DNA of 64,000 nucleotides. Origin: Paramecium tetraurelia. Its lineage: Eukaryota; Ciliophora; Oligohymenophorea; Peniculida; Parameciidae. The translations under genes were made by a program, and so were the position numbers. A model generated the notes under the pieces. That model was given only the letters and a program-made list of their open reading frames with translations. It had not been told where the DNA came from and ran no database searches. Each line of letters opens with the position of its first letter. Position 1 is the first letter of the stretch. The DNA is taken from the NCBI RefSeq assembly GCF_000165425.1, contig NW_001799155.1:441572-505571 (forward strand), given 5' to 3'. Positions 3,245 through 52,214 of this stretch are shown in pieces.

Positions 3245-6200
3245 TCATTCTCTTGCTCCTTTTTATCTGAATAGTTAAATGATTGATTTGTCATTTTAAG
3301 TGATTTTTGAATCCTTTACTATGCATTAATTGGCTAATAATAAAGATTATCTGGAAAACGATTTATAACAAATTAGTCTGAAATCTTTTTTAATATTTTC
3401 AACTACTTAAATTTAACTCTATTCTTGATTTTCATCGTTTTGTTTTATGTTTTAATCATTCTTAATTTATTCAACTGAATATAAATTTATAGATCCATCA
3501 GAAATTGCAGCTGCAAAATCAGTTCCATTAGGACTGAAAGTAAAACTATTCACTTAATTATTCTAATTTTCTATTTTCTAATTTTCTTCAAATTTATTTA
3601 AATCCATATCATTAGAGTTTGTTAAATCCCGAAAATAAATTGTACCAGTTTCACTACCAACAATCAATTGGGTTCCTGAAGGATTGATACTGAAAGTAGG
3701 ACATTTTTCGAGACTTTTTAATGATACCTACCTAATCACAGTTAATTTCTTTGAATCTATAATTTTTACTATTAATATGAGAGCATCATACAATATAGCA
3801 AATATTGAATCCACAGATGCTGATACAATTGATTTGGCTTCATTATCTTTTATGACTCCTTCTAATTTGCTCTCTATAATATCCAAGGTAGGAGTAAACA
3901 ATATAGGACTCCCACTTATTAGTGTAATTAAATTTTAAAAATCTGATGAATATATAAGGCCATTTACTTTTTTATCATTTAACTCTAATGTATGTAATTA
4001 TTTAATCCTAATTAGTTATTATGAGTCTTATGAATTGTAAACTAAAAACTTTCCATTTGCTGAAATACAAAGATTTTTTTTGCCGTAAAATTATAGATCA
4101 TAAACAGCTACTTATTAACATTTTCCATCATTTATAAATTTCCATACCTATATTTTATTATCAAATACACAAACATAGTATTGTTATTTTGAAGCAAATG
4201 AAAGGCTTCTCAGAGGTTAAACTTAAAAACTGTTGTAAAGTAATTTTATATTATCTAATTCTCTGATATCTAAAATATTGATTTCCTTTTGATTTCCTAT
4301 TATTAATGTCTTTAAATCTATAAGCATAGCATTGTTTCCAGACCATTTATCAGTTTTTAAAATTTGCTTTTCCGTTCTTAAGTCCCATATTATAAAGCCT
4401 TATTAATTTAATTATACAATATAATCTCCATCTTAAGTGGAGGTAAAGTCTAATGGCTATAATTTTTCATCTATTAAAATTTTACTTTATCCAGGATTCA
4501 AAAAGCAAATCCTTTTCTTTCCATATTCACTATAGTTTAAAACTGATAAATGCTTAGGAGAGAATATATAAATATCACAACTGTCGATTTACCAAATATT
4601 TTTTAATTTTAATTTGAAATCTTCTTAAACAGAAAAAATACAAATTTTTTCTTTTTAACAACAAACCAGTTCATTGCCTTCATTTATAAATTATAAATTT
4701 TTAGTTGATTGTTTTTGAATCAAAGTAACATCTTTAATAATTGATTTCTCATAATTCCATAAATAAATTTTATAATCGCTTGTAGCCAAAGCCACTAAAC
4801 TTTCATTTTAAGAAAATGCTGTAATGCCATTATAATTTTGAATATCTATTTAATACTTTTATTATTTATTGAGATTGACTAAGAAAATTTGAGTATTCTT
4901 ATGGGAATAAACTATAAAATTGCATGACTTAGAAAACTATAAAAAGTAATCTAATTATTAAAATTCTAATTTAGTAACAATTTCTTTTTATTTATTTTTT
5001 ATGTCCCACTTTAATATCTCACAACTTTCTGAAGCTGTATAGAGAATGTTTGAATCATCTTTGCTAAATTCAAAAAACTTAAGAGTTCCTTCAAAATCTA
5101 AATTCACATCTTCTTATTTTTTAGAAATATCAACTATAATGATCATAGATCTTTACCTTTAGTAAATAGCTAAATATCGATCTTCCTATGATATAATAGA
5201 CTGTTGAGAATTGTTAAGATTCTTGATTTCAGATTGTATTTCTCCAGAAATGCAGTCTATTAATTTTATTTAATCTTAATCCATTAATATAAATTAGTTT
5301 TAACTGTTTGATAAATAACAGCTCTAAAATTAGATTTTTAGATCAACTAAAGGCATTTACTTTTACATTTAATTAAGATTTGATATGATAATGGCATTAC
5401 TATTTATTGATACCAAGTAATCTTGGTAATCATATTTAATTATATTAATTTAAATAATGGGTGGTTCTATTAAAATTTTCGATTACTTTTTCCAACTATT
5501 ATTTGTTTTTTACCAAATAATCATAATATTTTTATTATCTATTGATAATAATTGTCGACCATAATCCCATGATCTAATCATTACAACTTCAAATTAATGT
5601 CCTTCAAGAATATCAGTTTAGTCAGTTGATAAATTATGAATTTTAACTAGATTATCATAACCTTAAAATATATAATCCTCATCATCTGACAAACAAATAG
5701 GATTGATCCCATATTAAAAGATTTCAAATTTTTTATCTTTTTAATCTATTTTATTCAAACTCCAAACTTAAATTTTCGTCACTATTTTTTATTTACTATC
5801 TTTTTATTTGCCTCCATCATTTGAAATAGTAGCAAAACAACCTGATGGAGAAAAATGTAAGAAATCTGGAAATAAATATAGCTCATTTATTTTATAGAAT
5901 AAAGTTGTCTCCTAAGGAAATTTAACATCCCACAAACATATTGATCCATCAATACTTCCTGATGCCAACCATTTAGAACAAAAAGAAAATTCTAAACATT
6001 TAACAGCCAACTTATGTTATTTTAACATAATAATAAAGTTTTTTTCTATTAAATCCCATAAAATAATTGAGCAATCTCCACTACATGAAGCAATAATAAG
6101 ACCATCTTTTGAGAAGGCAACTTAGTTTACACATTGTTAATGTCCTTTTGAAACATTTGATTATTCACTTTATTCAATATTCCATAATTTAATTTATTAG

Positions 6201-9200
6201 TCATCACTTGCAGAGGCCAAACATTATCCATCAGGAGAAAAAGATAATTAATTAATCTTCCCTGTATGACCTTCTAATACTGCTATTTTCTTTTTAGCAT
6301 TCACATTCCATAAAAATATCTTTTAATCTTTGCTGCCAGATGCTAGTAATTTCATGTTCTATGAGTAACTGAGGCATCTAACATTGTCATTGTGATCTCC
6401 GAGTAAAGTATTTTCTTTTTTATTAAGATTAATCAGATATATACTTTTATCACAACCATAACTAATGATATTTTAATCAATTTGTGCTAGGCAATTTATT
6501 ATCCCTTAAACAAATTTGTGAATTTTTTTTTCAAAAAAATCAAATCTATATGTCTTAATATCTGAAGAATATCCAGATATAATTTATGAATTATCAGAAG
6601 ATATTAAAATAAAATAATTATTTTCACCTTTTTCATTCAATTAATTTATACTTACTATTTCGGCATTTGATAACCAATTCAAATTCATTAATTTGAGTCT
6701 CGTTGATTCCTTAACTGATATATAACCAAATGAAGGTGTCACTGATACTTCACCTACATCAAATCCGCCCTGGAGAGAGCAGAGAAATTTTAGTTATTTA
6801 TTTTCATCAATGGAACTTATCACTTAGTTAAAGTCTTTTTAGTAATGCAATAAATTGCCATTCCTAGAAATTTAGATTGGGAGTATCTTATTATCATTAA
6901 TAATTGTCAAATCTTTATAATTTTTAATGTCATAAAATTTAAAGCAATAACCTTATGAATATCCGTCACTAACTTATTGATAATTACAAGCTATTAATTA
7001 TCCATCAGAAGAAATTGCGGATTATCTAAATAATTCATAAAAAACTTCAAATTTTGAAGATATTAGATCAAAGATCCCTGAACCCTCCTTATTTCGGATA
7101 AATATTTTATTATTGCAATCAAAAGAATTTACTTGAAGTATTTTACTTTTTGGAAACATAAATTTAATTTTTTATTGGGTTTTTATTTCTCTAATTACAA
7201 AATCAGAATTCGATATGTAACATATATAGTCATTGTTACTTGTCCAAGAAAATGAATATAAGTTTTTAATTTGTATAGGTTTGAATCTCATATATATTTT
7301 AGGGGTCTTAGATATTAAATAGTCTTATTGTATTTTCACATTATAAAATTAGAACCTAATCGTTTTTGCCGAGTTTGAGAGAATAACTTTCTTCGCAAAT
7401 AGTAAAACTAAAGATTTCCTCTTTCGAACAAATATTCTACTTAACAATATTTGATTTATTTGAAATTATGCAATGTAAACCATCTTAAAAGAACTCTACA
7501 TGATTAAGTTTATAATCGATACAAGCTATTGATTTCTACTATTTACAATCAAAAATTTCGATACCATTATAATCTTTAGTAACAAGGTATCCATTTTTTA
7601 ATAATTAACCAAATTATTTTGAAGTAGGAATTATTCCTTTTAAAGTGCATTTTGAGAGAGGAGTTATTTTTAATTTTCTCTCCATAAGATATATAAGATT
7701 TTGATCATTATCAATTAACAATAATTAGCTGATTACACTTTAAGGTTTATAAGCATTAATCATCTCAATTTTATTCTCAAAATATCTCCAAACCCTTATG
7801 TAATTCCCACCAGTCACAAATAAATTACCATTCTTAGAGAAGCTAATACTATTATATGCTGAATCTAAAGGAAGTTTATTATTAACAATTTTCTCTCCCG
7901 ATGTTTAATTCCAAAATATTATGTTTTTATCGCTTAAACATACTAAAGATATTCCATCTGGGCAAAATTGAAATACTAGAGAGCTGTAATTTTAATCCTC
8001 AATTTCCAAAACTCTTTCTTCATTCTTGCTTATGTTCCATAAAATTATTTAATCCTAAATAAATCCTTAAATAATAGCCAAGGTATTATTGTCATATGAT
8101 ACTAAAATAGTTCCCCTAGAGGCCTTATATTAATCAAGTATCTTTATTCCAGATCCATTAATTTCATCTTAAATTCTTATTTTATCATCATCGGTCTAAA
8201 TAATTAATAAGGAGCCATCAGGAGAATAGATAATTTATTCTATTTCAATGCGCTCATCTATTTCTTTGAATTTCTAACATTCATAAGGAGCTTTGCTAAT
8301 ATTCCAAAAGTATAAGCTGCCATCCCCAAGTATTGTAGATAGTATTGGCTTGCAAGGAGAAAAAGCCAGAGCAGAAATTTTTTTTTAATTTTCAATTTAT
8401 TTATCTATCAGTTTTTTTTCTTTAAAATCATATAAAGATATTTATTTGGATTAGCTACTTATCATGGCCATTATTTAATAATTAGCTTAGAGTGAAAATT
8501 GTGTTATTTAGATATTATTGAAATAATCTTATTCTTCCGATTGATTGAAATACTAATTTTTATCATCATAAATAATAATTTCATTTTAACATTGTTCAAA
8601 TATTAAATCCTAATTATAAAATGAATTTTTTTATCTATTACTAAGAATTACTTCCTGGAAAGTGTTCAAATCCCAATATCTTACTTTTTTTCCTTTTATT
8701 ATTAATCTCTATTCATTACTAGTAATATCAATTTAGGTTATTTCTTAATCAAAATATATACTATTAATAATAGCTTAAGTATTAAGATCTAATATTAATA
8801 GTGTTTAATCTTAAACAATAACAGCAAAATTAGAATTAGGGAATAAGTAAACATGATAGGAATACTATATATTAGCAAGATAGGCAGAATCATCATACTA
8901 AAATTCTCCATAGGCTAAATAGTTTTCTGTTCCAATGACTATTTCTCTTTCATTGGGTAAGGTTAAATATTAGATTTAATATTCTTTAAACGATAAAACT
9001 TAGCATTTACATTTATCTTTCAAATCCCATAATAATAGTAAATTTGTACATGCAGATACTAATCTATTTCCTGCCTTACTAAAAGCTAAGGCCTGAATCT
9101 TTCCGGTATGACCTACCAAAATCCTTTCAACCCCAGCTTTTAATTTTGCTAGTTTAATAGTAGAGTCTGCTAAGCCTAAAGCAATCAATTAATCATCTTA

Positions 9201-12200
9201 TGTCAAAGTGTAAACCAAGATTTCCTATTGACACTAAAATATAATATCCTTCGGTTTTTCTGTGATAACTTCCAAATTGCAAATTATTAAAATTCCTGAA
9301 CTATCAACTGAAACTATTTTTTTTCCATCTAAAGTGAATTTGACTCCTGTGACTGGATGGTCGTGATAATCTATGGTAGATATCAAAGACTTAATTTATG
9401 GATTCTAAATATCCCATAATTTTATAGTTTTATCTTTACTACCAGAAGCTAGAGTTTTGCTATCAGGTGAAAAGGCAATTGATAATATTTAATCTTAATG
9501 ACCATCTAATTGTTAAATGACTTTATAACTTTCCACATCCCAAAGACTTACTAAATTTCCTTTTCCATTTGATGCAATTAATTTACCATTTGAAGAAAAT
9601 TCGACAACTTTAACTTGTTCATCTTCTTTTAAAAATGGTTTTTCTTTACATCTTACATCTTTCCATTCAATATCTGTCAAATTAGCATAATTAAAATTAC
9701 AAGAATTAATATTAATATTAGTAAATTTAGATTTACTTAGATCTGCGTTACAAAAACTTAAACCTGAGATATTAGTATCAATTAACTAAATTTCTGAAAA
9801 ATTTTCATATCCTAAATAAACATCCAATTAAGATAATAAGAAAATACTATTTGAAGCAGCATATATATATTACTTATTTTTAGATAATTTAACAATATTA
9901 ATAAGAACTCTTTTTATGTTATCTAGACTACCTATTTTGTCTTTAATAAAATTTAATACTCCTTTAAAATGATCCTTGGAAATATTTAATTCAGGTTTAT
10001 TATATAATTATTTCATCCATCTTTCAATATATTTTGCATCTTAATTTTTCTCATTCAAAAATTAAGAGCCAGCTTAAAGCAATAAATCTATTATAAATTT
10101 AGCCACATAAAATTCTTAAATAGATTTGTGAGTAAAGGAATAGATACTTCCTTTAGCGTTTAAGAGAATACAACTTCGTATTAATTTATTATAATCAAGT
10201 TCCTGTTATGAATCATTAAAATAATCATCAAGCCAACCATCATCATTTTATTACCAGTTATAATTATTTGTTAATTTCAATTTTCCTTTTTATTAATACG
10301 TGATTTAAGATAGTTAATTTTTAGTCATATCTATTGCTAAATTAGATGAAAATTCTAATATATCTATTTAAAAACTTTCCCAATTTGAAATTTTACCTGT
10401 CTCTCTTAACTTTTGAATTTGTTAATCATGATAAAAATGAATAAAACTCTCATAGAACTCAAATATTGTCAACTTTTTCATCTTTAAGGCTTAAACTACA
10501 TATTCTATATCCTGACTAGAGATACTAAAAGACTAATTATCAACTAGTAAGTTTTAATTTTCGATTTTAAGAATGCTAGTTATTGAGTAAAATTAAAAAA
10601 ATTTTAAGCTTTCCAATTAATCTAAAAGTTCAGCAGGTTTTGTTTAGATTTTTGAAATTTCAAGTTTCTCAAAATATTAGATATTTTAGCTTTTTCCATC
10701 AAAAATTGTTTGGATTACTTAATTATTTTCTTTTTAATCTAAATTAATTTTGTAATTCTCTTATAAATATTTAGAAAAACTAGATTTTTATATAATACTG
10801 AGATAGCTCTAAACAAATCTATTTTTTAAATCCACCGAACCTTACTATTTCTTTGCCATATTAGGTAAAACTTAGACAATAATTTCAAACATGAAGGGAG
10901 TTGATAATAATTCAGAAATACCTACATTTTCTATGGCCTTTTCAAATTTATAAGCACTCCACAAAGATGACAAATCTTTCCTGAGGCCTGTAATCTATTC
11001 CTCTTTTAAATAATTAAATGGAGAATGCTATAAAATTTTGTTAATTAATTCTTCCCTCTAGGAATTTTCAAAAATTGATTCTGATTATTCTTTATATGAA
11101 CTTTAAATCCTGTTTTAAACTTCTACATTAACATAGTACCATATTTTTAAAAATTCATCTAAATTAAAGTTTTATTATGAAATCTATTTCAAGAAATCAT
11201 AAACTGCTCTTATTTTTCTCTTAACACTAAGTTCAGCATATTGAATTAAATAATTACTTTTTTAAACTGCATCGAAATCCTAGATCTATACTTCTTTTAA
11301 ATTCCTTATGCTATTCCCATAGAACCAAGTTTAATAACCCAAAGTGTTTAATATTTCTCTTCTGGTTGTGATGATTATCTTGACTTATTTTTAATTTTCA
11401 TCAATATTCAAATCATTAATTAACTTATTTGTAATAATGAGATTTTATTAGATACAATCTTATTTCATTTCATCATAACTATCAAGTATTAAAATGATAA
11501 ATTCTTTTTTATTTTAAATCGCATCTTTAAATTCTCTAAGTTAATATTTATCAAATTAATAATTATCAGATTCTAATGCTTATTCAAATAAATTATATTT
11601 TGGATTTTTTAAAGTTGGAAGTGATACAAAGATTGGAATCCATTTCGAATTAATTTCTCTTTATTTCCATAGAAATTCTTCAATTTTTCTAGCTGCTTTA
11701 CTTTTACCAGAACCAGCATTTCCTGAAAGTAACATAACATCATTTGATTTAGATTCATCCCAAATAAATTCATTGACTTCACCTGTGAAATCATTCCATT
11801 ATTCACTCATTAAATTGGTTATTGTTACTCCATCTTTGGATTTAATACTTTGCCCAGTAACAGGATCATATTCAATAGTTTTTAATTATACATATACAGA
11901 ATCTACTTCTGCTAATCTAGATTATAATAATATCTTTTATTTTCTTATTTCTAATAATTCATCATATCGTTTTCCTTTTAATTTACGAATATCATCACCG
12001 ACTTAATTTAAACTCTCTTATAAATTATCAATCTAACTTTTTATTTACTTCACATCTTTTGAGATATCCTTTAAAAATATTAAACTTATATCCATTTTCT
12101 CCGACATTTCAGTAATATTATCATTATATTGTTCAAGTTCTTCATAAGCTAGCTTTAGTTATTATTTAAGTTGCTCTTTAATTTATGAATTTCCTTCAAG

Positions 12201-15200
12201 TCTTATTTCTTATGAAATGCTTTCTATGCTGTTGATTCTTAATTTTATTTCTTATTTTATTTACTCTGATGTAGATTTGATATCCTAAGAAAAAAAAAGT
12301 TTTTACATTTCAATTAATTCCTTATTTTTCAATAGATTTCTGACTCTTTAATCTTTTTCAAAAACCCAAAGGTATTGAATCAGTTTTGATGAAAACTCTA
12401 CCATTTTGTCTTCTTTAATTCCTTACTATAACTTTATTAAATTAAAAGCTAAGCATTCTCTAATTTTATAATCATTGCTTAAAATCAAATACATCAAATA
12501 TCGACTTTTTTATTTTTACTTATTCGCATAGGTTATTGATTATATTTAAGTATAAAGGGTCTAAATTTTGAGGTATTTTATCCGAACTTTATTATCTTAA
12601 TTCAAAGAAAGCTAAAGTTTCTTATAAAGTTGATTCAACTTACTCAATTTATTAATCATTTCCTCTTTCAATTTAATGATCTTATTAATCATCCTCTTGT
12701 TTACTTTAAATGATACATTTGCAACTCTCTCTCTCTTCTTAACTTTATCCCTTTAATTTTTCAATAAAATTAATAATTGAAGTTTTAATTTAAAATTTGG
12801 ATTCTACTTGTTACATTTATGTATTGCAGTTATTGACATGAACTTAAATTTCTTCATTATCTGGTTATTAAAGTTAATTTATAATTAACATTAATAATTG
12901 TTCTAATAATTTCAGTAATTTATTAGTATCCTTTATCATTTTCAAATCTTTATCAACACAAAAATGACAGAAATCTAAATGCTTATTCTTTCTGATCCAA
13001 TTTTAGAAAGTCAATTTTTTGACATCTGCCAGACTATTATCAAACTCTCCTTAATTATTTTGAATTTCTCTTATAACATTATCATATTTTTCCATTTAAT
13101 TGTTTAAAGCCTCAAAGTCATAATATTCATTCTAATTTTATAAAACGATAAATTGAGCTTCTTGCATGAATTTAATAACTTATGATTTGATCGTTTTGGT
13201 TTATTAGCTTATAATATTTTCTTATTCATTTTGGATCATCTAATAATCTGTTTTTATTTATTAAAGGAGTTATTTTTTTTTATCTTTAATATTATTACTT
13301 CCTTTATCCAGGTCTTTTGATTTCAAAATATATTCTAATTTTTCCTTTTATTATGTTAACTACTTGATTAAAATTAATTTAAAATCTTAATAAAATTTTT
13401 ATTGTTCTTGAATGGCTAAACGTTTCTCCTTCTCTAAATTATAATCAAATGTGTTAATTTTATATTAGTGGATTTAGCAAAATTGTTTCATTAGTTTTAA
13501 TATTTAGAGACTAAAAGTACAATTTCTATAAATTTTCTCAATATCCTTTTTATTTGCAACTTTTTTTTGACCCAAATCAAATCTATCCGAAAAATTAGTA
13601 ACTAGTTATTACCTTAGTGTTTTAATCCATTAACCTGAACATATAGTATTTGACATAGCTTATATTTATAAAGGAGGAATTTTAATATTGTAATCATGTG
13701 TTTTAATACTTGATGCTGAGAAACAAAATTTTTGTTAAAATTCCTTTATATTTATTATGCACTATTATAATATTAATGATATTTCGGAATTTTATTAAGA
13801 ATTCAGGTGAATTTGAATCTAAAATTTGGAATTTACGTCATCTAAATCTTACTTTTTTGATATTGGATTTAAAGTAATTTCAGATAGATAACTCAAATAC
13901 TCTACCACTTTTAGAAAATTTGAAACAAAATCTTCCAAGAAGGCTTAAAATTTGACCTTAATAAATTCTTCAATACTCTAAAAAATCTACTTTAGTTTTT
14001 CTTAAACGTCAATCTTAAATTTATCAACGCAAGGTAAAAGCAACTTTAATTTTTCAAAGTCAATATTAGATCTTTCTATGACAAAAATGAGATAATATAA
14101 GGCCTATTTATATCCATCTAAAATTTATTTTCTAAAAACAATATAACCATCTTAGAGTAATTTGATTTAAAGCTATGTATTATCCTATTAAGTAAAATAA
14201 TCTGTAAATGAATCTTTCATTTATTAGTAAAGAAGAACTAATTCATCTAACTAAGAATTAAATCTTTCAATTTACTTTTCTATAAATAATACATCATTAT
14301 TTTGTAAAACTATTTCATAATCCTTTATAGTAATTTCGTGCTTATTTTTAAAGCTAAAATCTTTATAGAAATTCCAAAGGTTAATTTACTGAGAAAATTA
14401 ACCTTTTAATAGAGAATCTGATATTAATTTAAACTTGGGAATACTCTATTTTTCCATTAAGTTGTTTATTTCTTTGCTAAAATATTTTACTTGATTTTGA
14501 AATAACACTGCAGACCCTTAATTTCTATTCTATGGAAGACTAAGAATTAAGTTATTTTCAATTAAATTATTCCACATTGATTATTATTCTATTGGAGAAC
14601 CTTTAACAATTTCAAATTTATCGAGAATGGGTCTATATGCTAAAATATCCATTATCATTGATATCCAACTAAAATGAATGATCCAATTATCTGAATTTAG
14701 AATATATTATTAAAATGCATCTTTTAGTTATTTCAATTAATTATAGACTGAGTACTAAGATTTTAATTGCCTCACGATAGTCCATTTAAGAGTTTGGAAT
14801 AAATAATAAGTAGCATATACCTCTTCAGGATATAATACTTTGTCTTTATATTGTAAAAATAAAAATTTAGCTCCTTCAATAAGACTTGGGATTAAGTCTT
14901 CAGTAGGTGACATTGCCAAAGCTGACTAAGCTACATTTTTAACAATATTTATTAATAAATTTTTTCCTTCTTCTGAATTGGTTTGACAATTCATCAACAT
15001 TATTTTCATAAGAGTTATTTCATATTCTATTCCTGTATTCCATACATTTGCTTATTCAATGCTCAATTACCCTTTAAATTCCTCTACATCTTGTAATAAT
15101 TCTTATTGCATAGTTAATTCCATTTTTCGATCCTCATTCTGTATTTAAAATGAATATATAATTCTCAAAAAATCATTACAAATTTAAAGAACTTAATAAC

Positions 15201-15654
15201 ATAAAAACCATGAAGATCTTAAATATATGGGAAGAATTTTTAGCAATTCCCTAAAAGAATTCAAAGATTTTGTATATATTGATTAAGTTAAATTTTGGTT
15301 AACGCAACAAGTATTTAAATGTTCTCTATTATACATAAACCATTAAAATGCAATTATTACTTCATTTCTTTGTTAGGGATCAATTAAAAGTGAAGCTTTA
15401 TTATTGATAATGCTAACATAATTTTCAAGTTTAATCAATAAATCATTGGGTACACCAATAATTAACTTTTCTTCAACTTTTGAAGTTGGTTTTGATTATC
15501 CACAGCCTCCTCCTCTTAATTGAATTTCAAATTATTATATAGTTCCCTTAACAAAAGTTGCACAAAATTTTGACTTTTGTGGCTGAGGATTCAACACATC
15601 TGAAAAAAGACTGCTATTGTAGCTATCCTTGCAATTTACCAATTTGATATTCAT
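3245..15654 (-). pseudogene. Giant NACHT-WD40 STAND protein, copy A (two frameshifts)
   Basis: About 4,130 codons with TAA/TAG read as Gln and no intron visible. The start is the ATG at 15654 (MNIKLVNC), followed by a conserved RGGGCGQ motif and a long helical, Gln-rich region. A NACHT NTPase follows, with Walker A GNAGSGKS (11723-11700) and Walker B ILILDSYDEM. Then come a pentapeptide-like strip (near 9700-9830; NISGLSFCNADLSKSKF) and many WD40 blades (about 9650-3480) such as KTIKLWDIQ. It ends QKGARE before TGA. Against copies B and C it has an extra base in the run at 12481-12484, giving TGA at once, and another extra base at about 7263-7267. These make it a probable pseudogene, unless they are assembly errors. 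By family it would be an ATP-switched signalling scaffold. Confidence 0.8.
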
Positions 15655-15925
15655 GATACTTTTGAAATATTTATTTAAATAATAGAAAGAGTTTCGTTTT
15701 TATTTGTATTTGAATATAATATAATAGATATATTTTCCTAGATTTATTGTATAAGTTTATTAATGTTTGTCCTAACATTGGAAAAATAATTTAAATTAAT
15801 ATCTATTTTACAAATGAAATAAATTATATATATAAACAAGACATAAAAATAATTAACCAGATTAAAAACTGTCTTTAAAAACGAATTAATTTAATACTGA
15901 ATATTTTTTTATATATTCATTAATA
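15655..15925. other. Spacer upstream of copy A
   Basis: AT-rich spacer, about 270 bp, with no gene. It is weakly similar to the spacer upstream of copy B (30830-31159). It would hold the promoter of copy A, but I see no defined element. Confidence 0.4.
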
Positions 15926-17290: not shown

Positions 17291-17344
17291 TCCTCTAATT
17301 AGTATAATATATTTATAGTAAAAAATAATATATCTTATTATTAT

Positions 17345-31159: not shown

Positions 31160-34100
31160 TCATTAACAAGCTCCTTTTTAGAGAAACAATTCTATAATAG
31201 ATTTATTTTCTGAGTTTATGCTTGACTTTGATAAAATGGACTATTGAGCAGTCAATAAGGATTATTTGGCAAACGATTTATAACAAAATATTTATAATTT
31301 AGTGATATCCTCGTTTAATTTCAACTATTCAAAACACTACTTTTTAACAAAATTTGTTTAATTAGCATCAATAGAATATAAATTAACTGAGCCATCCGAA
31401 AGACCTGCTACAAAATTAATTCCGTCTGGACAAAACTTAAGAATTTTTACTTCATCGTTTATTTTATCATTCAAGCAAATTTATTAAGATTGCTAGACTT
31501 TCCATAGCGCAATTGAATTTATGAAATCTACTTAATTTTAACCTCCCGTTAATAGAAAATCGCCTTTTGGAGATAAAGCAATAGAGCTTATATAATTTTT
31601 CTCTCCTTTGATAGTCCAAAATTGAACAAGATCTTTTTAGTCATAAAAAGCATAAATTTACACGCTTGTTGAACACATCAAGCCTAAAAATTTTTGATTT
31701 AATGAAAATTCAGATTGGCTGACTTGAAAATCTAATTTGATTTCTTTAACTTTTTTGAAACTTATAGAATCAAAAAGTTAAATTGTTTAGTCAAAAATAA
31801 CGACTATCAAGTTGCCATCATTTGAATAGAATATCTAACCTTAATTTATTTACCTGTTTAATTATATGCATTTTTCTTATTTGATATTTTTAATATTCAT
31901 TATTTCAATGATATTTTCATTGCTTAATGCAAAATAATTACCATTTCCTGAGAAAAATGGTTTACCTTTTGAATTATAAACTGCTTTAGATAAATTTTCT
32001 ACAAACTTATCAATATTATTAAATACAACTTTTATTTTATTGAAATCATCTTTAACTTAAATTAATAAATTATTAGAGTAGATAGCCATATCAATTATTT
32101 TGTTATAAAATTTAATTTCTTTAATTTTTACAATTTTCTCTATTTTATTGATTCTTAAAAACTAAAGTTTATTCCTATTTGCAATAACTAATATTTCCGA
32201 TGATTAAAATTAAATGATTTCTCCAGTAAAATCTTCAAAGTTATGAATCATTTAAAGATTTTATAACTCCAAAATTTGCAATGAAGGAGTCAAGCTTGCC
32301 AAATATTTACTATCTGGTGAAAAGCAAGTACAATTTTAATTTTCTATACCCTATAACTCATTTTTATGAATAGTTGGATACAGCTTTAAGACATATACCT
32401 AATTACTAAGTTTTAGAGCAATTTCTTATTTCCTAGAATTAAAGGCACAGCTAAGAATTAAAGATTGTACATTCCAACATCCAAGAATTCTACTTGTTAA
32501 TGTTTCCTCTAATTAGTAAAGGTATATTGTGCAATCATGGCAAAATAGCAATTACTTATCATCATGTGAAAACTATATGAACGAAACATTATATAAATTT
32601 AAATCATCAAAAACGTTGATCATAGACACTTATTTTCCCTTAAAAACCTTTACTCCTTTTCTAATAGCAACAGCAATTATATTTTCATTTTCAGAACAAG
32701 CAATTAGAGAAAATTCTTCTTCAATAGACAAAGAGGAACTTTCATTTGCTTGAAAATTCCATAATTCTAATTGTGAGTTTGACTAACTCTAAAACATTAA
32801 GAATTTAAGATTGATAGAAAATAGAACAAGATCAATTTTAACTGTTTCAGGAAGAGTCACTATAGTTTTATGTAATTGGGTTGTGACATTCCATTCTCGA
32901 ACTGATCCATCAGTATATAAAGCCAATATCCTATTTGAATCTTAAGCAGAAAATTAATATATTTTTAATTTATTATCTTTAACCTCTAGTTATTTCTTAA
33001 TAGCTGGATTATTAATTTCCCATAAAGTAATGACATTATCGTATTTTTCTTTACTTATTTGTTGAATATCTTAATAACATGCTAAATATTTATTATCCCT
33101 AGATATTTATGGGGATTTAAAATTTTATGATCCTTTGAATTCATATATGCATTACCAATTAATTGTGTCAAATATTTAAACTTCTTAAGATTTTAATATT
33201 GCTGTTTGAGCTAAGTCAATCGAAAAAGCAATCTCTCGTTATTCAGATGAGTCAAATTTTTAGTTTGTCTTCTATTCAACACTTTGAAGCTTTGAAAAAT
33301 CATGAAGCAATGTTCTAAAATTGTTTGAAACAGCATCCGAAAATAGTGGTTGTTCTTAAGTAGTACAATCTTTAGCTTAAAATAAAAATTAATTATTTGG
33401 AGATAGTAAAATATATTTTGATTCTGACAAATAAACCCATTTTTTGAACCAATTATTATCCTTGTCTTTTGACCAAATATATAATAATCCTTAGCCTTCC
33501 AAACATAAGATTAAACGACCATCTTGTGAAGGTATTATTTAAGTAACTTTTGAATTTTATTCTAACACTTATTTTTTTTTAGTTTCTACATTTAAGATTG
33601 TCATCTAATCCTTATTTTACTAAATATAAATAAATTCATTTTATTAATAAAAACAATATTACTTTAAATTAGTATTTAAAATTATAGGCTTGTCTTTTTC
33701 ATATTGCCCAATTTACTTGAAATTCCATTGTTATAGGTTATCAACTTTAGAGAAAGAGGCAAACAATTATTCTTTTGGTGAAAAACTAAGGGAATTTATA
33801 GGAAAGTTGAACTCATCTATGATGTAAAGCATTTTGGTTGCTTATGGATATTCAATATTCCAAAAGATTATTGTTCCATCAATGCACCCTGAAATCAAAT
33901 ATCTTGAGCAATAAGAGAATTACAAGGAGGTAATAGAATCCTTATGTCCTTTTAATTACGTTATAAGCCTCTTCTCCTTAAGATCCCACATTATAATAGG
34001 CACTTCAGCATCTCCGCCTTTTATGCTACCCGAAGCTAATAAAAAACCGTCTTGAGAAATAGCGAGTGCACTTATCGAATATTAATGGGCTATTTAAGCT

Positions 34101-37100
34101 TCCGAGGACTCATTTTACTTTATATTCCAAAGCCTAATTAGTTTGTCATCACTTGCTGAAGCTAGAATACTACCGTCCTATGAGACTGAGATGGCATTTA
34201 TTTTTTTTTAATGTCCTTTCAGAGTTCCAACAATCTTTTTTGCTTTTACATCCCAAAACATAATATTATTCTCTTCTGTACTTATTGCTAACCATTCTTA
34301 ATAAGGCAGATATGTCATGCAATTGATGTCTTTCTTAGTTGTTCCAATCAGAGTTTTAGAAGATTATGATGTTGAGAATAGCATGATTTAGTTTTTATTA
34401 TTAACAAACACAAATGAATCTTTTCCAACTGCTTTCAAATAAGATCTAGAGAATCCTTCAATCTTTAAATTTTCTATTTATTTTATTACAAAATTGTTAT
34501 TCTCCAAAATAGACATTTACACATAATCATTAACAAAGCAAATTAATTCTTCATCAAAGCTTAATTAGAAACAATTGTAATATAATTTACTCCTTATCAA
34601 TACAATTTATTTTGACTTTTAGGTGTCAATAATTCGAAATGTTTTTTTCTCCTGATCTAAAATGGCTAGAAGTAATTATTTGTTAGATACTCCCTATCTT
34701 TAAAATATTTAAGCTTATTTTATATAAGGATCTTTAATTGCATAATTCTTCTCTAACTGATATTGCATTCCTTTGCATATAATTTTTTGATTTTTTGTAA
34801 TTGAAAATATTCTAATCATATAATATGAGCTTAACGAGAAATCATACCCACTGTTTGTAAATTTAATAAAGCAATCAGAAATTTTATTCTATAAATCAAA
34901 AGTGTCAATAATATTTAAGCTACCATTAGAGTATTCAATCAATAAAATTTTTGATTCTGCTTACACAATAATAAAATTGTTTTCTTAGCATAATGCTACA
35001 GCATTGACGTCTCCATTAAATGGAACCATTTCTTTAGTATCTAATTATAATAGAGAGAGCTTTCTTGAATAGGATAAAATAATAAGGAATTACGATTTAA
35101 TGGACATGAGCAATTGTTTAATGTACTGATCTTAATTGATTGGAAATGCAAATAAAATATTGAATATATCTTTGATATTAATATACTGTCCATCTTTAAT
35201 CCCTGCTCCAAGTTATTCATCTTCTTAAATAGAGAATGAACTAATTCCTTCATGATAGCCGCAAAGTTTAATGTTGTGTAGATCACTGAGTTTCCATATT
35301 CTTACATAGTTTTCACCTTACAAAATTAATATTTCATTCTATAAATACAATTAAGGCATAGCCTTTTCATTAATCTTTATTCCAGATATCTATTATCCTT
35401 TTTCACAATCCCAAATTTTAATCATTTAATCATCACATTACAATAAAACATTTTATTTAGCATTGAGAAATTTTAAAGATTTTGTATTTTAGCTTACTTT
35501 AAAAGAAAAATTGCATTCTTCGAATTCATTGCTAAATATATTTACCTCTAGGTTTTATGATAAAGCAATCATATCATTGGAAGATATTGCACCACAATCA
35601 AATTTCTATTCAAATGTTTATTCCAATTAAAAGCAATCTAAATTACAAACCAATAATTCTGAATTTGCATTTAACATAATAATTTGTTTATCATCATTAA
35701 TAAAACTAAACTACTTAATTGGAAATTCAAACACTTAAGATCCAATAAACTTTAATGTAATATCAGAACGTTTCCATAATTCTACAACATTCCTTTGAAA
35801 TAAAGCAACTAAATCAGTATTCTCAGAAAAAGTTATCTATTCAAAATCTTTTAAATAAGTGTTCTTTTTTTCAATTATCTAAAAAGTATTTAGATCCCAT
35901 AAAATAAGTTCGCCAGGACTTCCAGAGATTATAGATTTTTAATCATGAGTGAACATGAATTTGATTTTATCGTTCCTATGACCTTTTAACAATGTTTATC
36001 CATAATTCTGATTTTTGTTTTAAACGACAATATTTTGATTATGATTGAGGCAAAACCCTATAAAATTATTATCTTATGAAAATGAGACGTATGCTTCTTC
36101 TTTAGATTCTTCAACTCTTAGTAGATTATGTTCTACATCATAGATTTTGAACTAACTTTGAAATACCAACACAAATTATGAGCCATCTCTGGAATAATTT
36201 ATGGATTTAATTATTAAATCACCAAAATTAATTCTTTTTTACACATTAAAAGGTTTAGAGTCTAAATTCCAAAATAGTAATTCATCTTAATATCCAACGG
36301 CAAGTTCATTTTTAGTTGATGAAAACTAAACAGCCTTCACTTCTTTCTTTTGGTTTTCGAGTGATTCTTGAATTTATTAATTTTTATCCAAATCATAAAT
36401 TTTAATAGACTAGTTCTCTGATGTAACGTAAGCTACAATCCAACTTTATGGTTTAACATAAAAGTGATCAACACTTAAACTAAATTTTCTAATCTCTAAT
36501 TCCTTCTGAATTTTCTATGTATTTAATTTTAGTATTCTTTAGAAACTAGGCTTTAACTTTTAATCCTATTTAAGATTATTTATTAAAACCTTTGAACTGT
36601 TGTCATATGAAATATATAATTTTTCAAAATTATTTGATAATATGTAACTAATCCAATAATTTGAATCCCAAAAGATTAAACATATCGTTTTAAGAGTTGA
36701 AACTTCCAAAATAATGAATTATTTGACTACTTATTCAGCTTTTAAGAAAAAAGCCAATTTAAAGCCATCTTTAGAAAATTGTAACTGATTTGGTTGAAGA
36801 TCAAAATTAATTGAATTAACCTATGATCCTGAAGTTGGTTCAATTATATTTAGTTTCTTTTCATAAACCACTGCAGCTATATTACCTTAAGGCGATAGTT
36901 AAATTTCAAAACATTAATCCTTTTCTATTTAACTTTAATTCTCATTCTAGATTAGTTCTCTTGAAAACAAAAATTCTTGTGCCCCAAAAATTATTTATTT
37001 ATTATCTTATCCAAATATAATTGAATATACTTTAATATTTTAATTGAAGTTAATTATTATTAATTCTTTTTTAGTATTCTCTTATATATTCCAAACAATT

Positions 37101-40100
37101 GCTTTACTACTAGTAGTTATTGCAAAATAAATCCCATCATGACTAAATGTAAAATCCATTATTCTAATCTAATTTGAATCAATAACAGGTTCAAGCGACG
37201 TTTAATCATTCGTTATGTAGTTAATTAAATCAACTTATTTGTTTTGTTTTATAACTGCAACCATTGGTTCAGTTGGATGCAATGCAAATTATGTGATTAA
37301 CGCATTATTGAGATTGAAAATACATTCTTCACTTTGACCATCCTTTAATAAATCTAAGATTTGGAAATTTCCATCTCCATCTTAAGAATATAACCTTTTT
37401 GAATCCTGAGAAATTTATACTTTTATGACTTTGTTTTTCATTTCATCCACAATTTCACTTTTTAGAGGATTCTTTATATTCCATTTTCTAATAGTGCGGT
37501 CATCACTTCCTGAAAATAGTATTGAAGAATCTGATGAAAAATATAGAGTATTAATTTTGGCTGTATGTCCTTCTAAGTCTTAAATAAATCGATAAGTTTC
37601 TGCATTCCATAATTTAATTTGATTTTCTGTACCTACTGATGCGATATACTACCCATCAGGAGAAAATTGAACTTCTAAAACTCCACTATTATAGCCTTTT
37701 AAAAAGGGTTTTTCTTTACAAATTACATTTAACCATTATGCGTTTGACAAGTTAGCAAAATTTAGATTGCATGAATTAATTTCAACATTTTTAAATATCG
37801 ATTAACTTAAATCACAATCGAATAAACTTAGCCCAGAAATGTTTGTATTTTCCAATTCGATTCTGTTAAAATCTTGTGATCCCAAATAGACATTCATTTA
37901 ACTTAATAAATACATGCTATTTGATGCTGCTCTACAATAAACTTTATTCCTAGAAAGTTTTACTATTTCAATCAATTATAAGTTCATGTTTTGAACATTG
38001 ATTAATTTTTCTTTAATAAAATTGATTACACCCCTAAAGTTATCTGTGGAAATGTTGAATAAAGGATCATTAAAAACAGATTTAATCAAAATCTTTTGAT
38101 TTTTAGATAATTCAACTTTCCTTTCTTCTTAGATATTAACATCAAAATTATCCAAAGATGTTAAAAGATCAAAAATATACTTTGCAACATAGAACTCTTA
38201 AATTGATTTGTGTGTAAATGAAAATGTAGTTCCTTTAGCACTTAATAAGATGCAACTTCGAATTAATTTCTTATAATCATCTTCCATATCAAAATATTAA
38301 TTCAACCAATCATCAATAACTTATTCAATTTTATAATTACTTTTTAGATCAAGCCTACCTTGTGGTTTATAACCAATTTATGATAACTCTCTCAAAGTCA
38401 TATCAATGGCTAACGAATAAGAGAATTGAAAAATGTCACATGAGAAACTCTCGTAATTTGATACTTTACCAAGTTCTCTTTGTTTTTGAATTTACTGCTC
38501 ATGATAAAAATTAATAAAACCTTCATAAAATTCAAATACTGTGAATTTTTTCATTTTTAAAGCGATTATCACAGAATTAGTAACTTCAGAGCTTAATTTT
38601 ACTGTATTACCATCAAAAACAATATTATCTGCATCACGATGTAATGTGCTAACTATTGAGTAGTTTTGAAAAAACTTCTGATTTTCTAATTTATCAACAA
38701 TTTCATCTACTTTTGCTCTCTAAATTTTTAATTCAAGCTCTTCATCTTTCTCCTTTTCAGAAGTTTATTCATCATCAAGTTTTGATATGTCTTTTTGTTC
38801 ATTTCCAACAGAAGGTTAATTCTCTTTTCTATAAAATTCTTGTGCATTTTATGACAGTTTTATTTATTTTTATAAATTCATAAAATTTTTAATAAAAATA
38901 TCTTTTATCTAAGTAGACCCTGAATATCTTTTTGCCATATTAGGCAAAACCTAAACAATAATTTCTAGCATAAATGGAGTAGTCAATAAATCTTGGATCT
39001 TGATACTTTCAATAGCTGTTCTAAATTTATTAGCACTCCATAAAGCTAATAATTCTTTTCGTAATCCTGTTGTTTATTCTTCTTTCAAAATTTCTAAGCT
39101 TTTATGAGTTTTTAGCCTATCAATAACTACATCTTCTTCCTTATTTTGAAATATTCTATCTTAATTTCTAGAAAAAGATTTATTAATGCAAACAATCACT
39201 TATTAAGAAATCAAACCCCAAATAGTTAGAAACTCTTTCAAATCAAAGGACTATCCAGAAATTGATTTTACAAACTCATAAACTTCTTTTATTTTCCTTT
39301 TAACACTCAATTCAACATATTAATTTAGATATTCCATTTGTTGCTACTCATTAAAATTTTATAACTAAACTTCCTTCAACTTTATTAGACTTTCTCCGTA
39401 AAACCATGTTTAATATCCCGAGACATTCAGTATTTCTTTTCTTGTTGTGATTATTACTTTCATTTACCTATTTACTTTATCAATATTTAATTCTTAAATC
39501 AATTTATTTGTCATAATTAGATTTTATTAGATACAATCTTATTTCATTTCATCATAACTATCAAGTATTAAAATGATAAATTCTTTTTTATTTTAAATCG
39601 CATCTTTAAATTCTCTAAGTTAATATTTATCAAATTAATAATTATCAGATTCTAATGCTTATTCAAATAAATTATATTTTGGATTTTTTAAAGTTGGAAG
39701 TGATACAAAGATTGGAATCCATTTCGAATTAATTTCTCTTTATTTCCATAGAAATTCTTCAATTTTTCTAGCTGCTTTACTTTTACCAGAACCAGCATTT
39801 CCTGAAAGTAACATAACATCATTTGATTTAGATTCATCCCAAATAAATTCATTGACTTCACCTGTGAAATCATTCCATTATTCACTCATTAAATTGGTTA
39901 TTGTTATTCCATCTTTGGATTTAATAATTTCCCCAGTAACAGGATCATATTCAATGGTTTTCAATTAAACATATACAGAATCTACTTCTGCTAATCTAGA
40001 TTATAATAATATCTTTTATTTTCTTATTTCTAATAATTCATCATATCTTTTTCCTCTTAATTTTCGAATATCATCCCCAACTTAATTTAAACTCTCTTAT

Positions 40101-43100
40101 AAATTATCAATTTAATTTTTTATTTACTTCACATCTTTTGATATATCCTTTAAAAATAATAAACTAATATCCATAGCATCAGATAATTCTGAAATGTTAT
40201 CTAAAGATTCGTCTAGCTCTTCATATTATTATTTTAATTTTAATTGAAGTTTTTCTCTTTTTTAAGAATTTCCTTCAAGTTTAATTTACTGTTGTAGGTT
40301 TTCAAGCTTTTACATTCTTTCTTTCAATTCATCTTTCAAAGAACCTGATAAATTATCTAAGTCTTATGAAAATAATTATTTTTAAATTTAAACTAGTTCT
40401 TTGTTTTTCAATAAATTTCTAACTTTTTAGTCTTTTTCAAATACCCACATATGCTATATCTATTTAGTTGAGAACGAGCTTATCTATTATTCTTGAATGC
40501 TTTATTATAGTCTTATTAAATTGTATACTAACCCCTCTCTGACCTTATTGTCAAGATTAAATTTAATTGAATCAAATATCTTTTCCTTGATTTCATCATA
40601 TGTATTTTTCATCTCTTGCCATATACAAGCATTTACTTCATCAGGTTTTAACCCTTTTGAGTATTCTTAATTGGATTTCAAATTGAAAAATGCCAAAAAC
40701 TCAGATAATTTTAGATTCACGATTAATCGCCATTCAATTTATTGATTTTCAATTGAAAATTTAGCATTCAATTAATTAATTTATGATATAACTTTTAAGT
40801 TAAAAAACTTTTCGCTCTTTTCCTTTAGATTATTTATTGATGCATTAATGTTTTGTTATTCTTAATTTTATAATTGAACAAGTTGATCTTTCAGTTTATT
40901 TTACTCCTCATTTGATTGCTCTTATAATATGATTTATTGGATTTTTGTTTGTTTCTGTTTCTAAATTTGTTTCTATTGATGAATTAAGCTTAGTCCAAGT
41001 TATAATAATTTTTTATAAGATTTAAAATAATTATTACTTTGCTTAATAAGTGTTAACATCTATTCGTTGTGATTATTTATTTAGGCAAAAAATTATAGAG
41101 ATTCATCTCTCTACTCATAGACTTCCAATTTTTTTTCATTATTATTATTATTAAAATTATTGACAGCATCTAAAACTTGATCATACTTTGTTTAAAGATT
41201 TTCTAAAGTCGATAGTTCTTCAGGATCTTTTTAAACTTAAAGGATAAGAAATTATGCTTCTGCCAAAAATTTTAATATTTAATCGCATAATTCTAAATTT
41301 TGTTAACTTTAGAATTCATTTATAATTTAGTCAAAATCAGCTTAAATTTAAGCCACCAAATTTTTACAACTTACTTTAAAATTTTAATCCTCACCTTCTT
41401 CAGTGTTTGCATTGACAAATGTTGATAATTTTGATTTTTATTACACCAAAATCTAAGCAATATTGGTTTTAAAATTTTAGTCTTCCTATTCATTTGATGA
41501 TTCAGATTGCCTGGTGAAATCTTAAAGTTAGGACCTTATGCTCTTTAAATAATGTTTTTGTACATTTAAGAATTACTTTAAGAATGATAAAATTATTATA
41601 CAGAATTTGCAGTTAATGAAAACTTATTAGGCATTTTCTAGAGTAATGAATTGTTGATTGAATAAGTTAAATTTTGAATCGAAAACATTTTTTAGTCTTC
41701 CAATTACTTTATTGATCCATTATCCTTTGCAATTGTATTCAATTATTTCCCAAATATTGGTAACTTATAATGGTATGGCTTTTTCAATTTTCTCTTCTTT
41801 TGAAAGATATTTAGAAAAATGTTGTTTAAAGAAGTTCAAGCTCAAAGTAAATTGCACAAAGTTTTTATCAAAAGTGAAAAAGAAATCTTAAAAATAATTA
41901 ATTTCAAATAAGTTCATTATTTTATCCAAATCTACTTCATTTTTCATTGCTAAAAATAAGCTTGCTTCATATATTTAACTTGCAAATTCAATGACATTAA
42001 AGAATAAATTTAATAATTAGTCAATAAATTCAATTAAATAAATTTTCACAAAATCATTAATTTTTGCTTAATAATCTAATAAAACAGATTTATTTTTTTA
42101 AATTGTGATTTAATTTAGATAAGGGGTAAGCATATTTATTTTAGCAGCTTCAAATAATGATAATTCAAGAATATAATTTGATAATAGAATCAATTTTTTA
42201 TAGATTTCTAAAAATTATTTTAAAGATACTTTTTAATCATCCTAAATGATTTAAATTGAAATATAAGAGTCCTATTTAAAATAGTTTTGAAAGGATTGTA
42301 TTATTTGTTGATTTACTGAGATTAATTCATCCTTTTAAGACTTCAGATTATTAAATAATTTTTAAAGTACCTCTTATTCATAATTTGCTAATATGATTTC
42401 ATAGTCTTATTATGATTTCTTACTTTAGTTTTTGAACTAAAAATTTTTATAAAACTCCCAATGATTAATATTATGAGTAAGTTCTCCTTTCAATAGAAAT
42501 TAAGAAAATAATAAAAACTTTTTCTTCCCATATAACTCCAATAAATCTGTTGCTTCGAAGTCATGAACTTAACTAGATTAATTTTAAAAGAATGTTATAA
42601 TAGCTTGATTCTTATCGTAAGAAACACAATGTATTAAATCGTTTTCAATAAGAAGATTCCATTTATTTAATGATTAATTTTTTTGCTTTTTCAAAATAAT
42701 AGACTTATCGATAATAGGCCGATAAGCAATTATATCAAAAATCATTTAAATCCAACAAAAATGCAAGATCCAATTATTAGAAGTTAGTATATATTATTAA
42801 AAAACATCTTTTAGTTATTATATTTATTTGTAGACTGATTACTTTGATTTTAATTGTCTTATTATTGACCATTTTATTAATTAAAATAAGTAATATGTTT
42901 AATAGGTTTCTTTAGGGTACATAGTTTATTCAATTCCTTTATTTAAAAGATATCGACCTCCATTAACGATAGTGGAAAGTAGATCTTCTGTTGGAGAGAA
43001 GGACACAATTGATTTACCTGCTTCCTTAAAAAAGTCAATTAATAAATCAGTTCCTTCAGTTGAATTAGTTTATGAGTTCATTATCATAATTTTCATTATT

Positions 43101-43795
43101 GTTACTTCAAATTCGATCCCGGTCTTCCAAACATTTGCTTATTCAATTTCTAATTGAGTGTTGAATTCTGATAACTTCTATAAGTAATCCTATTATACTG
43201 AAGCTTCAAAATATCTTTTAGGATTGTTTAATTAGAATGCATACATAATCCTTAATAATTCATTACAAATTTATAAAATTTAATAGCAAATAAATCCAGA
43301 AATTCTTAGGTAAGTTGCAAGCACTGTCAAAATATTATCAAAATTTTCTTAAACTAACTCATAAATTTTGTCAGTTTCTTTTTGATCTATACAAAAATAA
43401 TTCAAATGTTCTCTGTTATGAATAAACCATTACACTTTCATTAATAATTCATTTCTTTTGGTAGGGTCTCCTATAAATTTAGCTCCTTCTACTATTATGG
43501 TAAGGGTGTCACTCAGATTTGTTCTATAGTTGTCAGGTAACGATGATGAAATCATTAAATTTTAGTCTGCCTTTACTTTCTTATCAATCACACAATCTAC
43601 TTTTGATTATCCGCATCCTCCACCTCTTAAATTAATCGTATTCTTGTAGTAGATTTGCTTTTAAGAATTTTGACTATCGATATATGATACATGTATTAGA
43701 AAGTCTTATAAAGCTTAGAATAGTATTTCAATCATTTCTGTATGTATTTCTCTATTTTAAGTTACCATTAATTCATTCATCAATGTGGCTAACAT
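31160..43795 (-). CDS. Giant NACHT-WD40 STAND protein, gene C (intact)
   Basis: A 12,636-nt frame, an exact multiple of three, giving about 4,211 residues with no intron needed. I read it through from the ATG at 43795 (MLATLMNEL) to beyond the NACHT without a TGA, and sampled the WD40 part. Layout: RGGGCGQ at residues 57-63; a long helical, Gln/Lys-rich region to about 1,300; NACHT with Walker A GNAGSGKS (about 1332-1339) and Walker B with LDSYDEM (about 1411-1417); a helical linker; a pentapeptide-like strip (about 1965-2020); then WD40 blades to the end, for example DDRTIRKWNI. No signal peptide or membrane segment seen. Family knowledge: STAND NTPases oligomerise when ligand releases autoinhibition by the WD40 part. 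The trigger and the N-terminal effector are unknown. Confidence 0.85.
39515..40180 (-). repeat. Conversion-like tract over the NACHT motif, shared by copies A, B and C
   Basis: This block is nearly identical to about 11440-12105 in copy A and 26600-27265 in copy B, although gene C is strongly diverged from both on either side. The sub-block 39688-39885 is identical to 11609-11806. The right part (about 39900-40165) shares variants with copy B rather than A. The tract covers Walker A and the residues just before it. Confidence 0.8.
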
Positions 43796-52145: not shown

Positions 52146-52214
52146 ATATAAATAATTTTTTATTAAACGATGTAGTATTCTAAAATGAATTGATTATATA
52201 TAAATAAAAATAAA

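What the first reader, a model, noticed from the sequence alone, without database searches (positions are those of the whole stretch)
3245..43795. Tandem cluster of giant NACHT-WD40 STAND genes in a ciliate
Three genes of about 12.5 kb each lie head to tail. Each has a NACHT NTPase (GNAGSGKS, LDSYDEM) and a WD40 region of over 2,000 residues. This is the architecture of fungal HET/NWD and animal NLR-type receptors. Two copies are decaying and one is intact, the birth-and-death pattern expected for recognition or immunity-like receptors. A role in self/non-self or pathogen sensing is inference only.
Basis: partly seen in the sequence, partly recalled or inferred. Interest (0 to 1): 0.8.

Follow-up and report, generated by a model that had tools for sequence, protein, structure and literature searches.

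The report
Ciliate NLR-like receptor gene array
A Paramecium-type genome carries a family of giant proteins built like the immune and self/non-self receptors of fungi and animals; the genes found here are one tandem array of that family, and some relatives elsewhere in the genome have sensor repeats that vary at the same few surface positions as a known fungal recognition system.

Summary
Three head-to-tail genes (A 31160-43780, B 18403-30829, C 3245-15654; minus strand, code 6) encode a helical N-terminal module, a NACHT NTPase, a pentapeptide-like cap and about 2,200 residues of WD40. The array is larger than reported: D and E lie upstream on the same contig, and broken 3' tails of an A-like gene sit between units. 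'Two decaying copies' is only partly right: B and C have a few frame breaks but evolve under purifying selection (dN/dS 0.32-0.46), and a ~0.68 kb NACHT tract is 92-100% identical between A and B or C.

At least 32 NACHT loci of this family were found; 26 have the cap downstream, 23 the N-terminal module upstream. At four of them the WD40 part contains closely similar 42-residue units, shared with proteins bearing a different, cysteine-rich N-terminus. In 57 units, variation is highest at or near positions equivalent to those under diversifying selection in fungal HET-D/HET-E. The window's own WD40 repeats lack this pattern.

Best reading: a ciliate NLR-like STAND receptor repertoire, probably for non-self recognition. 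Ligand, output and expression are unknown. New variant of a known kind.

The parts
31160..43780 (-). Gene copy A, one open frame, 4,206 aa from the modelled ATG, no intron needed
42713..43537 (-). Part of the N-terminal module of A used as a probe (275 aa); 23 of 32 NACHT loci have it 2.6-3.4 kb upstream on the same strand; no Pfam family above cut-off; predicted helical at low confidence
39311..39820 (-). NACHT domain of A: Walker A GNAGSGKS, Walker B-like ILDSYDEM (motif names recalled)
   Evidence: (52.1 bits)
39498..40175 (-). Homogenised tract: A versus B and A versus C 92-100% in every 60-nt window from 40175 down to 39557; A-B median over 87 windows of the whole gene is 57%; read as gene conversion
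37694..37930 (-). Pentapeptide-like cap between NACHT and WD40 in A
31163..37753 (-). WD40 region of A, about 2,200 residues, divergent blades
18403..30829 (-). Gene copy B; frame breaks at about 30139, 27320 and 26892 (the last about ten bases from the Walker A codons)
26281..26996 (-). NACHT of B (two pieces either side of the 26892 break)
24799..25014 (-). Pentapeptide-like cap of B
3245..15654 (-). Gene copy C; frame breaks at about 12484 (or a 28-nt intron) and about 7267
11124..11837 (-). NACHT of C
9642..9857 (-). Pentapeptide-like cap of C
15926..17312 (-). Broken 3' tail of an A-like gene between B and C (frames change several times)
80..1399 (-). Second broken A-like 3' tail, below C; an N gap ends just outside the window

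Best explanation
The window holds a tandem array of giant STAND receptors of NLR type in a Paramecium-like ciliate. Shown: conserved N-terminal module, NACHT NTPase, pentapeptide-like cap, WD40 propeller matches; an expanded family (at least 32 NACHT loci); tandem duplication with leftover 3' tails; a homogenised NACHT core with diverging arms; purifying selection on B and C. Shown in relatives: the cap plus WD40 part is a module shared by NACHT proteins and by proteins with a cysteine-rich N-terminus, and at four NACHT loci its WD40 units are closely similar except at a few positions, among them those that diversify in fungal HET-D/HET-E. Inferred: the WD40 propellers bind a variable protein partner (microbial, or from another strain), binding frees the NACHT to exchange nucleotide and oligomerise, and the N-terminal module carries the output. 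The array A-E would be a branch whose WD40 repeats have left the shared repeat pool.
For: NACHT and WD40 models. Walker A GxxGSGKS, with no TGA in the core, in 29 of 29 loci whose DNA I held; the other 3 of 32 were not read. Family counts: 32 NACHT, 57 caps, 26 NACHT-cap pairs and 23 N-term-NACHT pairs. 140 matches to a 30-base WD40 word against 0 for the reversed pattern. NACHT and WD40 units lie in one open frame at C138 (1,551 aa) and C222 (1,196 aa). The four positions equivalent to fungal codons 7, 9, 25 and 27 rank 2, 3, 1 and 6 of 42 by entropy; 54 distinct combinations in 57 units. pN at these sites 0.589 against pS 0.242 in framework codons outside the search probe, ratio 2.43 (unit bootstrap 2.06-3.15). 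Framework codons of units are as alike between loci (0.863) as within (difference -0.005), which suggests exchange between loci. Homogenised NACHT tract.
Against: The window's own WD40 units are not closely similar and not specially variable at those sites. dN/dS of B versus C never exceeds 1 (highest 0.68, a 326-codon slice). Within the four variable codons pN/pS is only 1.15 (1.03-1.31), and synonymous change is raised there too, so local hypermutation or saturation is not excluded. Unit positions 1, 2 and 8, which are not among the four fungal sites, vary strongly as well. At C108 the frame changes between NACHT and WD40, and one NACHT piece outside the 29 (C111) holds a TGA. No known effector domain in the N-terminus; the fold model is poor (mean pLDDT 41.9). 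The TEP1 second-propeller model passes its cut-off in A and B. No expression, ligand, polymorphism between strains or phenotype could be examined.
Confidence: 0.6

Rival explanations
1. Constitutive scaffold: giant WD40 proteins that organise RNP, cytoskeletal or trafficking complexes, in the manner of TEP1 (NACHT plus WD40; vault and telomerase association recalled), with duplication a by-product of recombination.
For: Large WD40 proteins are often scaffolds. dN/dS 0.32-0.46 indicates conserved function. The TEP1 second-propeller model passes its cut-off of 89 bits in A (96.6) and in the B frame 18403-26898 (144.3).
Against: Several unrelated propeller models also pass their cut-offs in A (THOC3 337.5 against 305, WDR3 285.5 against 154, EML 215.6 against 90), so the TEP1 match is not specific. 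No TROVE or other TEP1 N-terminal domain matched the N-terminal piece of A or the B piece scanned. An expansion to 32 loci and variable positions in relatives do not suit a scaffold.
Confidence: 0.15
2. Recombination-driven repeat family with little function: similar WD40 units spread by unequal crossing-over, and variable positions merely reflect loss of constraint or local hypermutation; the array is on its way out.
For: Broken 3' tails, frame breaks in B and C and in E, frame-shifted units in C10 and C210, raised synonymous change at the variable codons.
Against: Framework dN/dS 0.40; B-C purifying selection; Walker A kept in 29 of 29 loci read; the variable positions include the fungal recognition positions (ranks 2, 3, 1, 6), whereas 39 ordinary WD40 units of the window rank them 8, 9, 3 and 26, a milder tendency in the same direction for three of the four.
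Confidence: 0.15
3. Receptors for an internal or conspecific cue (mating reactivity, nutrient or stress signalling) instead of defence.
For: STAND proteins also serve as ordinary signal switches (established knowledge, recalled); nothing here identifies the ligand.
Against: Copy number, module sharing and variable sites resemble biotic-conflict families more, though mating recognition could also diversify.
Confidence: 0.1

Closest known systems
Podospora anserina NWD/HNWD family (HET-D, HET-E, HET-R), PMC1805685 (passages seen)
   Same: NACHT followed by WD40; multigene family; in relatives of the window genes closely similar 42-residue units shared within and between loci; variation at the equivalent four positions, each pair flanking a conserved residue (placed by the paper in the d-a loop and the b-c turn)
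   Different: No HET domain; N-terminal module of over 1,000 residues and a pentapeptide-like cap; window copies themselves have degenerate repeats; a cysteine-rich non-NACHT class shares the sensor; no allorecognition shown
Fungal NLRs with high internal repeat conservation, PMC4986451 (passages seen)
   Same: C222 (0.905) and C138 (0.873) reach that paper's threshold (85% identity over at least 100 residues) in runs of three units
   Different: Ciliate host; the other arrays read fall below it (C108 0.76, C52 0.68, C10 0.77, C219 0.83, C210 0.80), and the array in the window shows no such repeats
TEP1 / APAF1 and animal NLRs (recalled)
   Same: STAND NTPase with C-terminal repeats; TEP1 propeller model passes its cut-off, as do others
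   Different: No TROVE, CARD or PYD among the matches of the scanned N-terminal pieces
WD40 family duplications in Paramecium bursaria (PMC7702705, passage seen) and WD40 repeats in Paramecium genomes (PMC5405496, PMC3464196, passages seen)
   Same: Expanded or repetitive WD40 genes in Paramecium
   Different: The passages seen mention neither NACHT, nor the cap module, nor hypervariable positions; the papers were not read in full
Bacterial NACHT proteins with diversified sensors, PMC10907252 (passages seen)
   Same: STAND NTPase coupled to a diversified sensor
   Different: There a lectin-type domain is diversified by a retroelement; here WD40 units, and no such element was looked for

Membership tests
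STAND/NLR-like receptors | NACHT or NB-ARC NTPase with Walker A | tested here: met
   52.1 bits in copy A; Walker A GxxGSGKS in 29 of 29 loci read, of 32 found
STAND/NLR-like receptors | C-terminal superstructure-forming repeats | tested here: met
   WD40 models across residues 2050-4246 of A
STAND/NLR-like receptors | N-terminal effector or signalling domain | tested here: inconclusive
   Conserved module, helical in a poor model, but no known family above cut-off
STAND/NLR-like receptors | Ligand-induced oligomerisation and immune or death output | not testable with these tools
   needs biochemistry and mutants
Fungal HNWD (HET-D/E/R) | HET domain at the N-terminus | tested here: not met
   No HET match at E up to 0.1 in the N-terminal piece of A or in the B piece 27301-30144
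Fungal HNWD (HET-D/E/R) | Closely similar WD40 units, in the window genes | tested here: not met
   No WD40-sized tandem DNA repeat in 1-44000; loosely found units of A differ throughout
Fungal HNWD (HET-D/E/R) | Closely similar WD40 units, in related NACHT loci | tested here: met
   At the 85% threshold 2 of 4 NACHT-linked arrays: C222 0.905, C138 0.873; C108 0.76 and C52 0.68 fall below
Fungal HNWD (HET-D/E/R) | Diversifying selection at the four interaction-surface codons | tested here: inconclusive
   Variability at the equivalent sites is clear; pN exceeds framework pS 2.4-fold, but pN/pS within the same codons is only 1.15
TEP1 | TROVE and TEP1 N-terminal domains | tested here: not met
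   No match in the scanned N-terminal pieces
TEP1 | TEP1 propeller | tested here: inconclusive
   Model passes its cut-off in A and B, as do several other propeller models
Bacterial NACHT/Avs defence proteins | Match to a defence-system model | tested here: not met
   0 PADLOC families for window 37540-40180

The most novel reading that the evidence does not exclude
Paramecium runs an NLR-like recognition system with a genome-wide pool of interchangeable WD40 units. Hypervariable surface codons, including the same ones as in fungal HET-D/HET-E, are generated and shuffled among NACHT receptors and a second, cysteine-rich receptor class that share one pentapeptide-WD40 sensor module; the window's array is a branch that has left the pool. 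This would be independent evolution, in a single-celled organism, of the fungal non-self recognition design.
Probability: 0.4. Interest if true: 0.88.

Novelty: new variant of a known kind. Interest (0 to 1): 0.7.

Why it matters
NLR-type recognition is studied mostly in animals, plants, fungi and bacteria (recalled). A ciliate family with the same engine, and relatives that vary at the same sensor positions as fungal allorecognition receptors, would give a single-celled model in which to test how such repertoires arise without multicellularity or cell fusion. Paramecium is a laboratory organism where genes can be silenced by feeding (recalled), so the idea is directly testable.

Tried and rejected
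Subtelomeric location: 13 of the 28 NACHT loci outside contig C153 lie within 10 kb of a contig end. I fetched 20 contig ends. Telomere-like repeats were clear at C50 and C217 and sparse at C10 and C15 (two motifs each); WD40 units were at C138, C222 and C191; three ends were N (C53, C52, C111); the other ten had at most one motif and no WD40 units that I recognised. So the clustering is at least partly assembly breakage in WD40 arrays, and I do not claim it.

N-terminal myristoylation: a GGGCGQSK stretch looked like a start, but in B and C it is preceded by variable sequence with earlier ATGs; dropped.

Fold of the N-terminus: mean pLDDT 41.9 with 3 sequences, so no fold search was made. Solved structures: no match for the NACHT piece up to E 0.1. 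Defence library: none.

Positive selection inside the array: not seen. Units more alike within than between loci: not seen.

The gene-model script deleted the Walker A of B as a false intron; I disregard that model at this point. One search read minus-strand loci in the wrong orientation and its alignment is void; one search replaces it. Of 60 WD40 units located, 3 were dropped before counting (frame-shifted or off register). The mapping of fungal codons 7, 9, 25, 27 to unit positions 3, 5, 21, 23 rests on the text of PMC1805685 (conserved codons 8 and 26) and the WD40 consensus as I recall it; I did not see its figure. The 30-base probe covers unit positions 24-33, so their conservation is partly by choice; one search leaves them out of pS. 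One search gives the ranks outside the probe in rising order, which makes them 2, 3, 1 and 6 of 32 counted from the most variable; its printed tail count is for the wrong direction and is not used.

Since several other propeller models pass too, I left the odds as they were.

Full report
What was checked. The window is contig C153:441572-505571 of a 69.07 Mb assembly. Mixed CCCCAA/CCCAAA repeats, many at contig ends, together with code 6 fit Paramecium; that this telomere mix is typical of Paramecium is recalled. No call names the species.

The array. Under code 6 copy A is one frame at 31160-43900, 4,206 aa from the modelled ATG at 43780. B (18403-30829) and C (3245-15654) are alike at 90.8% over 13.1 kb; A is far from both (A-B median 57% over 87 windows of 150 nt). 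On the same contig, outside the window, lie D (same strand, 3' half, next to an N gap) and E (opposite strand, modelled at 4,093 aa with one frame break). The cap search finds all five copies. Between the units sit broken A-like 3' tails (15926-17312 and 80-1399), as unequal crossing-over would leave.

Domains. The NACHT of A scores 52.1 bits against a cut-off of 26.7. WD40 models match in all three thirds of residues 2050-4246. Between them lies a pentapeptide-like cap (25.5 bits in A, under its cut-off of 38; a second pentapeptide model passes its cut-off of 20.2 in L036 and L081), whose homology to the caps of other loci is clear in alignment. The N-terminal module has no Pfam match above cut-off. 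Its fold model is helical but poor (mean pLDDT 41.9, pTM 0.30, 3 sequences). Several whole-propeller models pass their cut-offs in A, among them THOC3, WDR3, EML and TEP1, so none of them names the protein.

State of the copies. B and C differ by five frame-breaking gaps in the coding region, near B 30139, 27644, 27320, 26892 and 22419; the whole alignment has 22 gaps, 10 of them in frame. dN/dS is 0.41 over 938 codons of the N-terminus, 0.32 over 596 codons of the NACHT part and 0.46 over 2,190 codons of WD40, rising to 0.68 in one slice of 326; the WD40 part read off frame gives 0.82 and 1.04. So both lineages were coding for most of their separate history. A tract of about 0.68 kb over the Walker A to Walker B region is 92-100% identical in 60-nt windows between A and B and between A and C. 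This, with synonymous sites included, points to gene conversion of the engine while the arms diverge.

The family. A 240-aa NACHT probe gives 35 matches, which merge to 32 loci; 26 of 32 have a cap 0.9-2.2 kb downstream on the same strand, and 23 of 32 have the N-terminal module 2.6-3.4 kb upstream. Counts are lower bounds. Of 57 caps, 26 follow a NACHT, 10 follow a cysteine-rich module (22 matches in the genome), and 21 follow neither, one of these being D, whose NACHT would fall in the gap. All 29 NACHT loci whose DNA I held keep GxxGSGKS without a TGA in the core; C10, C39 and C111 were not read, and a C111 piece holds one TGA. In a tree of 28 of the 29, the array copies form one group (98/94) with C191 as neighbour (99/99); C108, C138 and C222 lie in a five-row group (100/100) with C169 and C206; C52 was too short for the tree.

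Hypervariable sensors. A 30-base WD40 word occurs 140 times with up to two mismatches, against 0 for the reversed pattern; the first 100 places were listed, and none of these is on C153. Units are mostly 126 bases (42 aa) apart. At C138 and C222 the NACHT and the units share one open frame; at C108 the frame changes between them; at C52 the units lie downstream of the NACHT on the same strand. I read eight arrays out of about thirty contigs with listed matches: the four NACHT-linked ones, three not linked to a found NACHT (C10, C219, C210), and one unit at the start of C191. C219 and C210 have a cysteine-rich N-terminus without a Pfam match to it, then the same cap. Mean DNA identity of units within an array is 0.75-0.85, and 0.81-0.92 over framework codons. 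Of 60 units 57 were kept. Positions 21, 3, 5, 2, 1 and 23 are the most variable, then 8, with 54 different combinations at 3, 5, 21 and 23; positions 1, 2 and 8 are thus variable beyond the four fungal ones. [quoted passage not shown] the spacing here is the same (conserved V4 and D22). The rank sum of the four sites is 12, reached by 4 of 111,930 choices of four from 42. The four sites have pN 0.589 against pS 0.242 in framework codons outside the probe (ratio 2.43, bootstrap 2.06-3.15), but only 1.15 against their own pS (1.03-1.31), and synonymous change is raised at those codons. So variability is shown; positive selection is likely but not proved. In 39 ordinary WD40 units from the window the four positions rank 8, 9, 3 and 26. 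Units are no more alike within than between loci (433 of 500 label shuffles reach the observed difference), which suggests one shared pool.

Reading. The architecture, expansion, module sharing and variable sites together fit NLR-like receptors better than a housekeeping scaffold. The array in the window is a member of the family but not of its hypervariable branch. The sensing and signalling steps are inferred.

In print. Ten searches of the held open-access library showed, in the rows listed, no title on NACHT-WD40 receptors in ciliates; in five of them fewer papers were listed than matched, and one of 20 was not listed. Passages seen in related papers: WD40 duplications in P. bursaria (PMC7702705), WD40 repeats in Paramecium (PMC3464196; PMC5405496), LRR, WD40 and P-loop NTPase domains among young Tetrahymena genes (PMC6564038), and a coral-dinoflagellate paper whose NACHT passages shown concern corals (PMC4083563). 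Subscription journals and preprints were not searched.

Noticed in passing
L078, L079, L080, L081 (contigs C219, C210): A second protein class with a cysteine-rich motif (APHxCxxQRKLCxxCxxxH) carries the same cap and variable WD40 units; no Pfam family fits its N-terminus.
   Followed up: partly
contig ends C138, C222, C191 (L061, L059, L070): Assembly contigs break inside arrays of similar WD40 units, so family size and repeat number are probably underestimated in this assembly.
   Followed up: partly
window 1-44000 versus 52001-64000: The array is clearly more AT-rich (22-26% GC in 2-kb windows) than the stretch from 52001 on (30-35% GC).
   Followed up: no
window 43560-43650, 30660-30680, 15500-15520 (minus strand): A conserved LRGGG(C) stretch follows about 50 variable residues at the N-terminus of B and C; the LRGG recalls a ubiquitin-like C-terminus but may be coincidence.
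   Followed up: partly
window 26880-26900: Copy B alone has a two-base insertion and nearby substitutions about ten bases before the Walker A codons, inside a tract otherwise almost identical in A, B and C; an assembly error is possible.
   Followed up: no
window 45336-46382, 49886-51589, 52886-55687, 55732-56913, 57654-59767, 61953-62924: Flanking frames look ordinary: LRR protein, helicase C-terminal piece and transportin-like pieces (both below cut-off), WD40 protein, protein kinase, MFS transporter.
   Followed up: no
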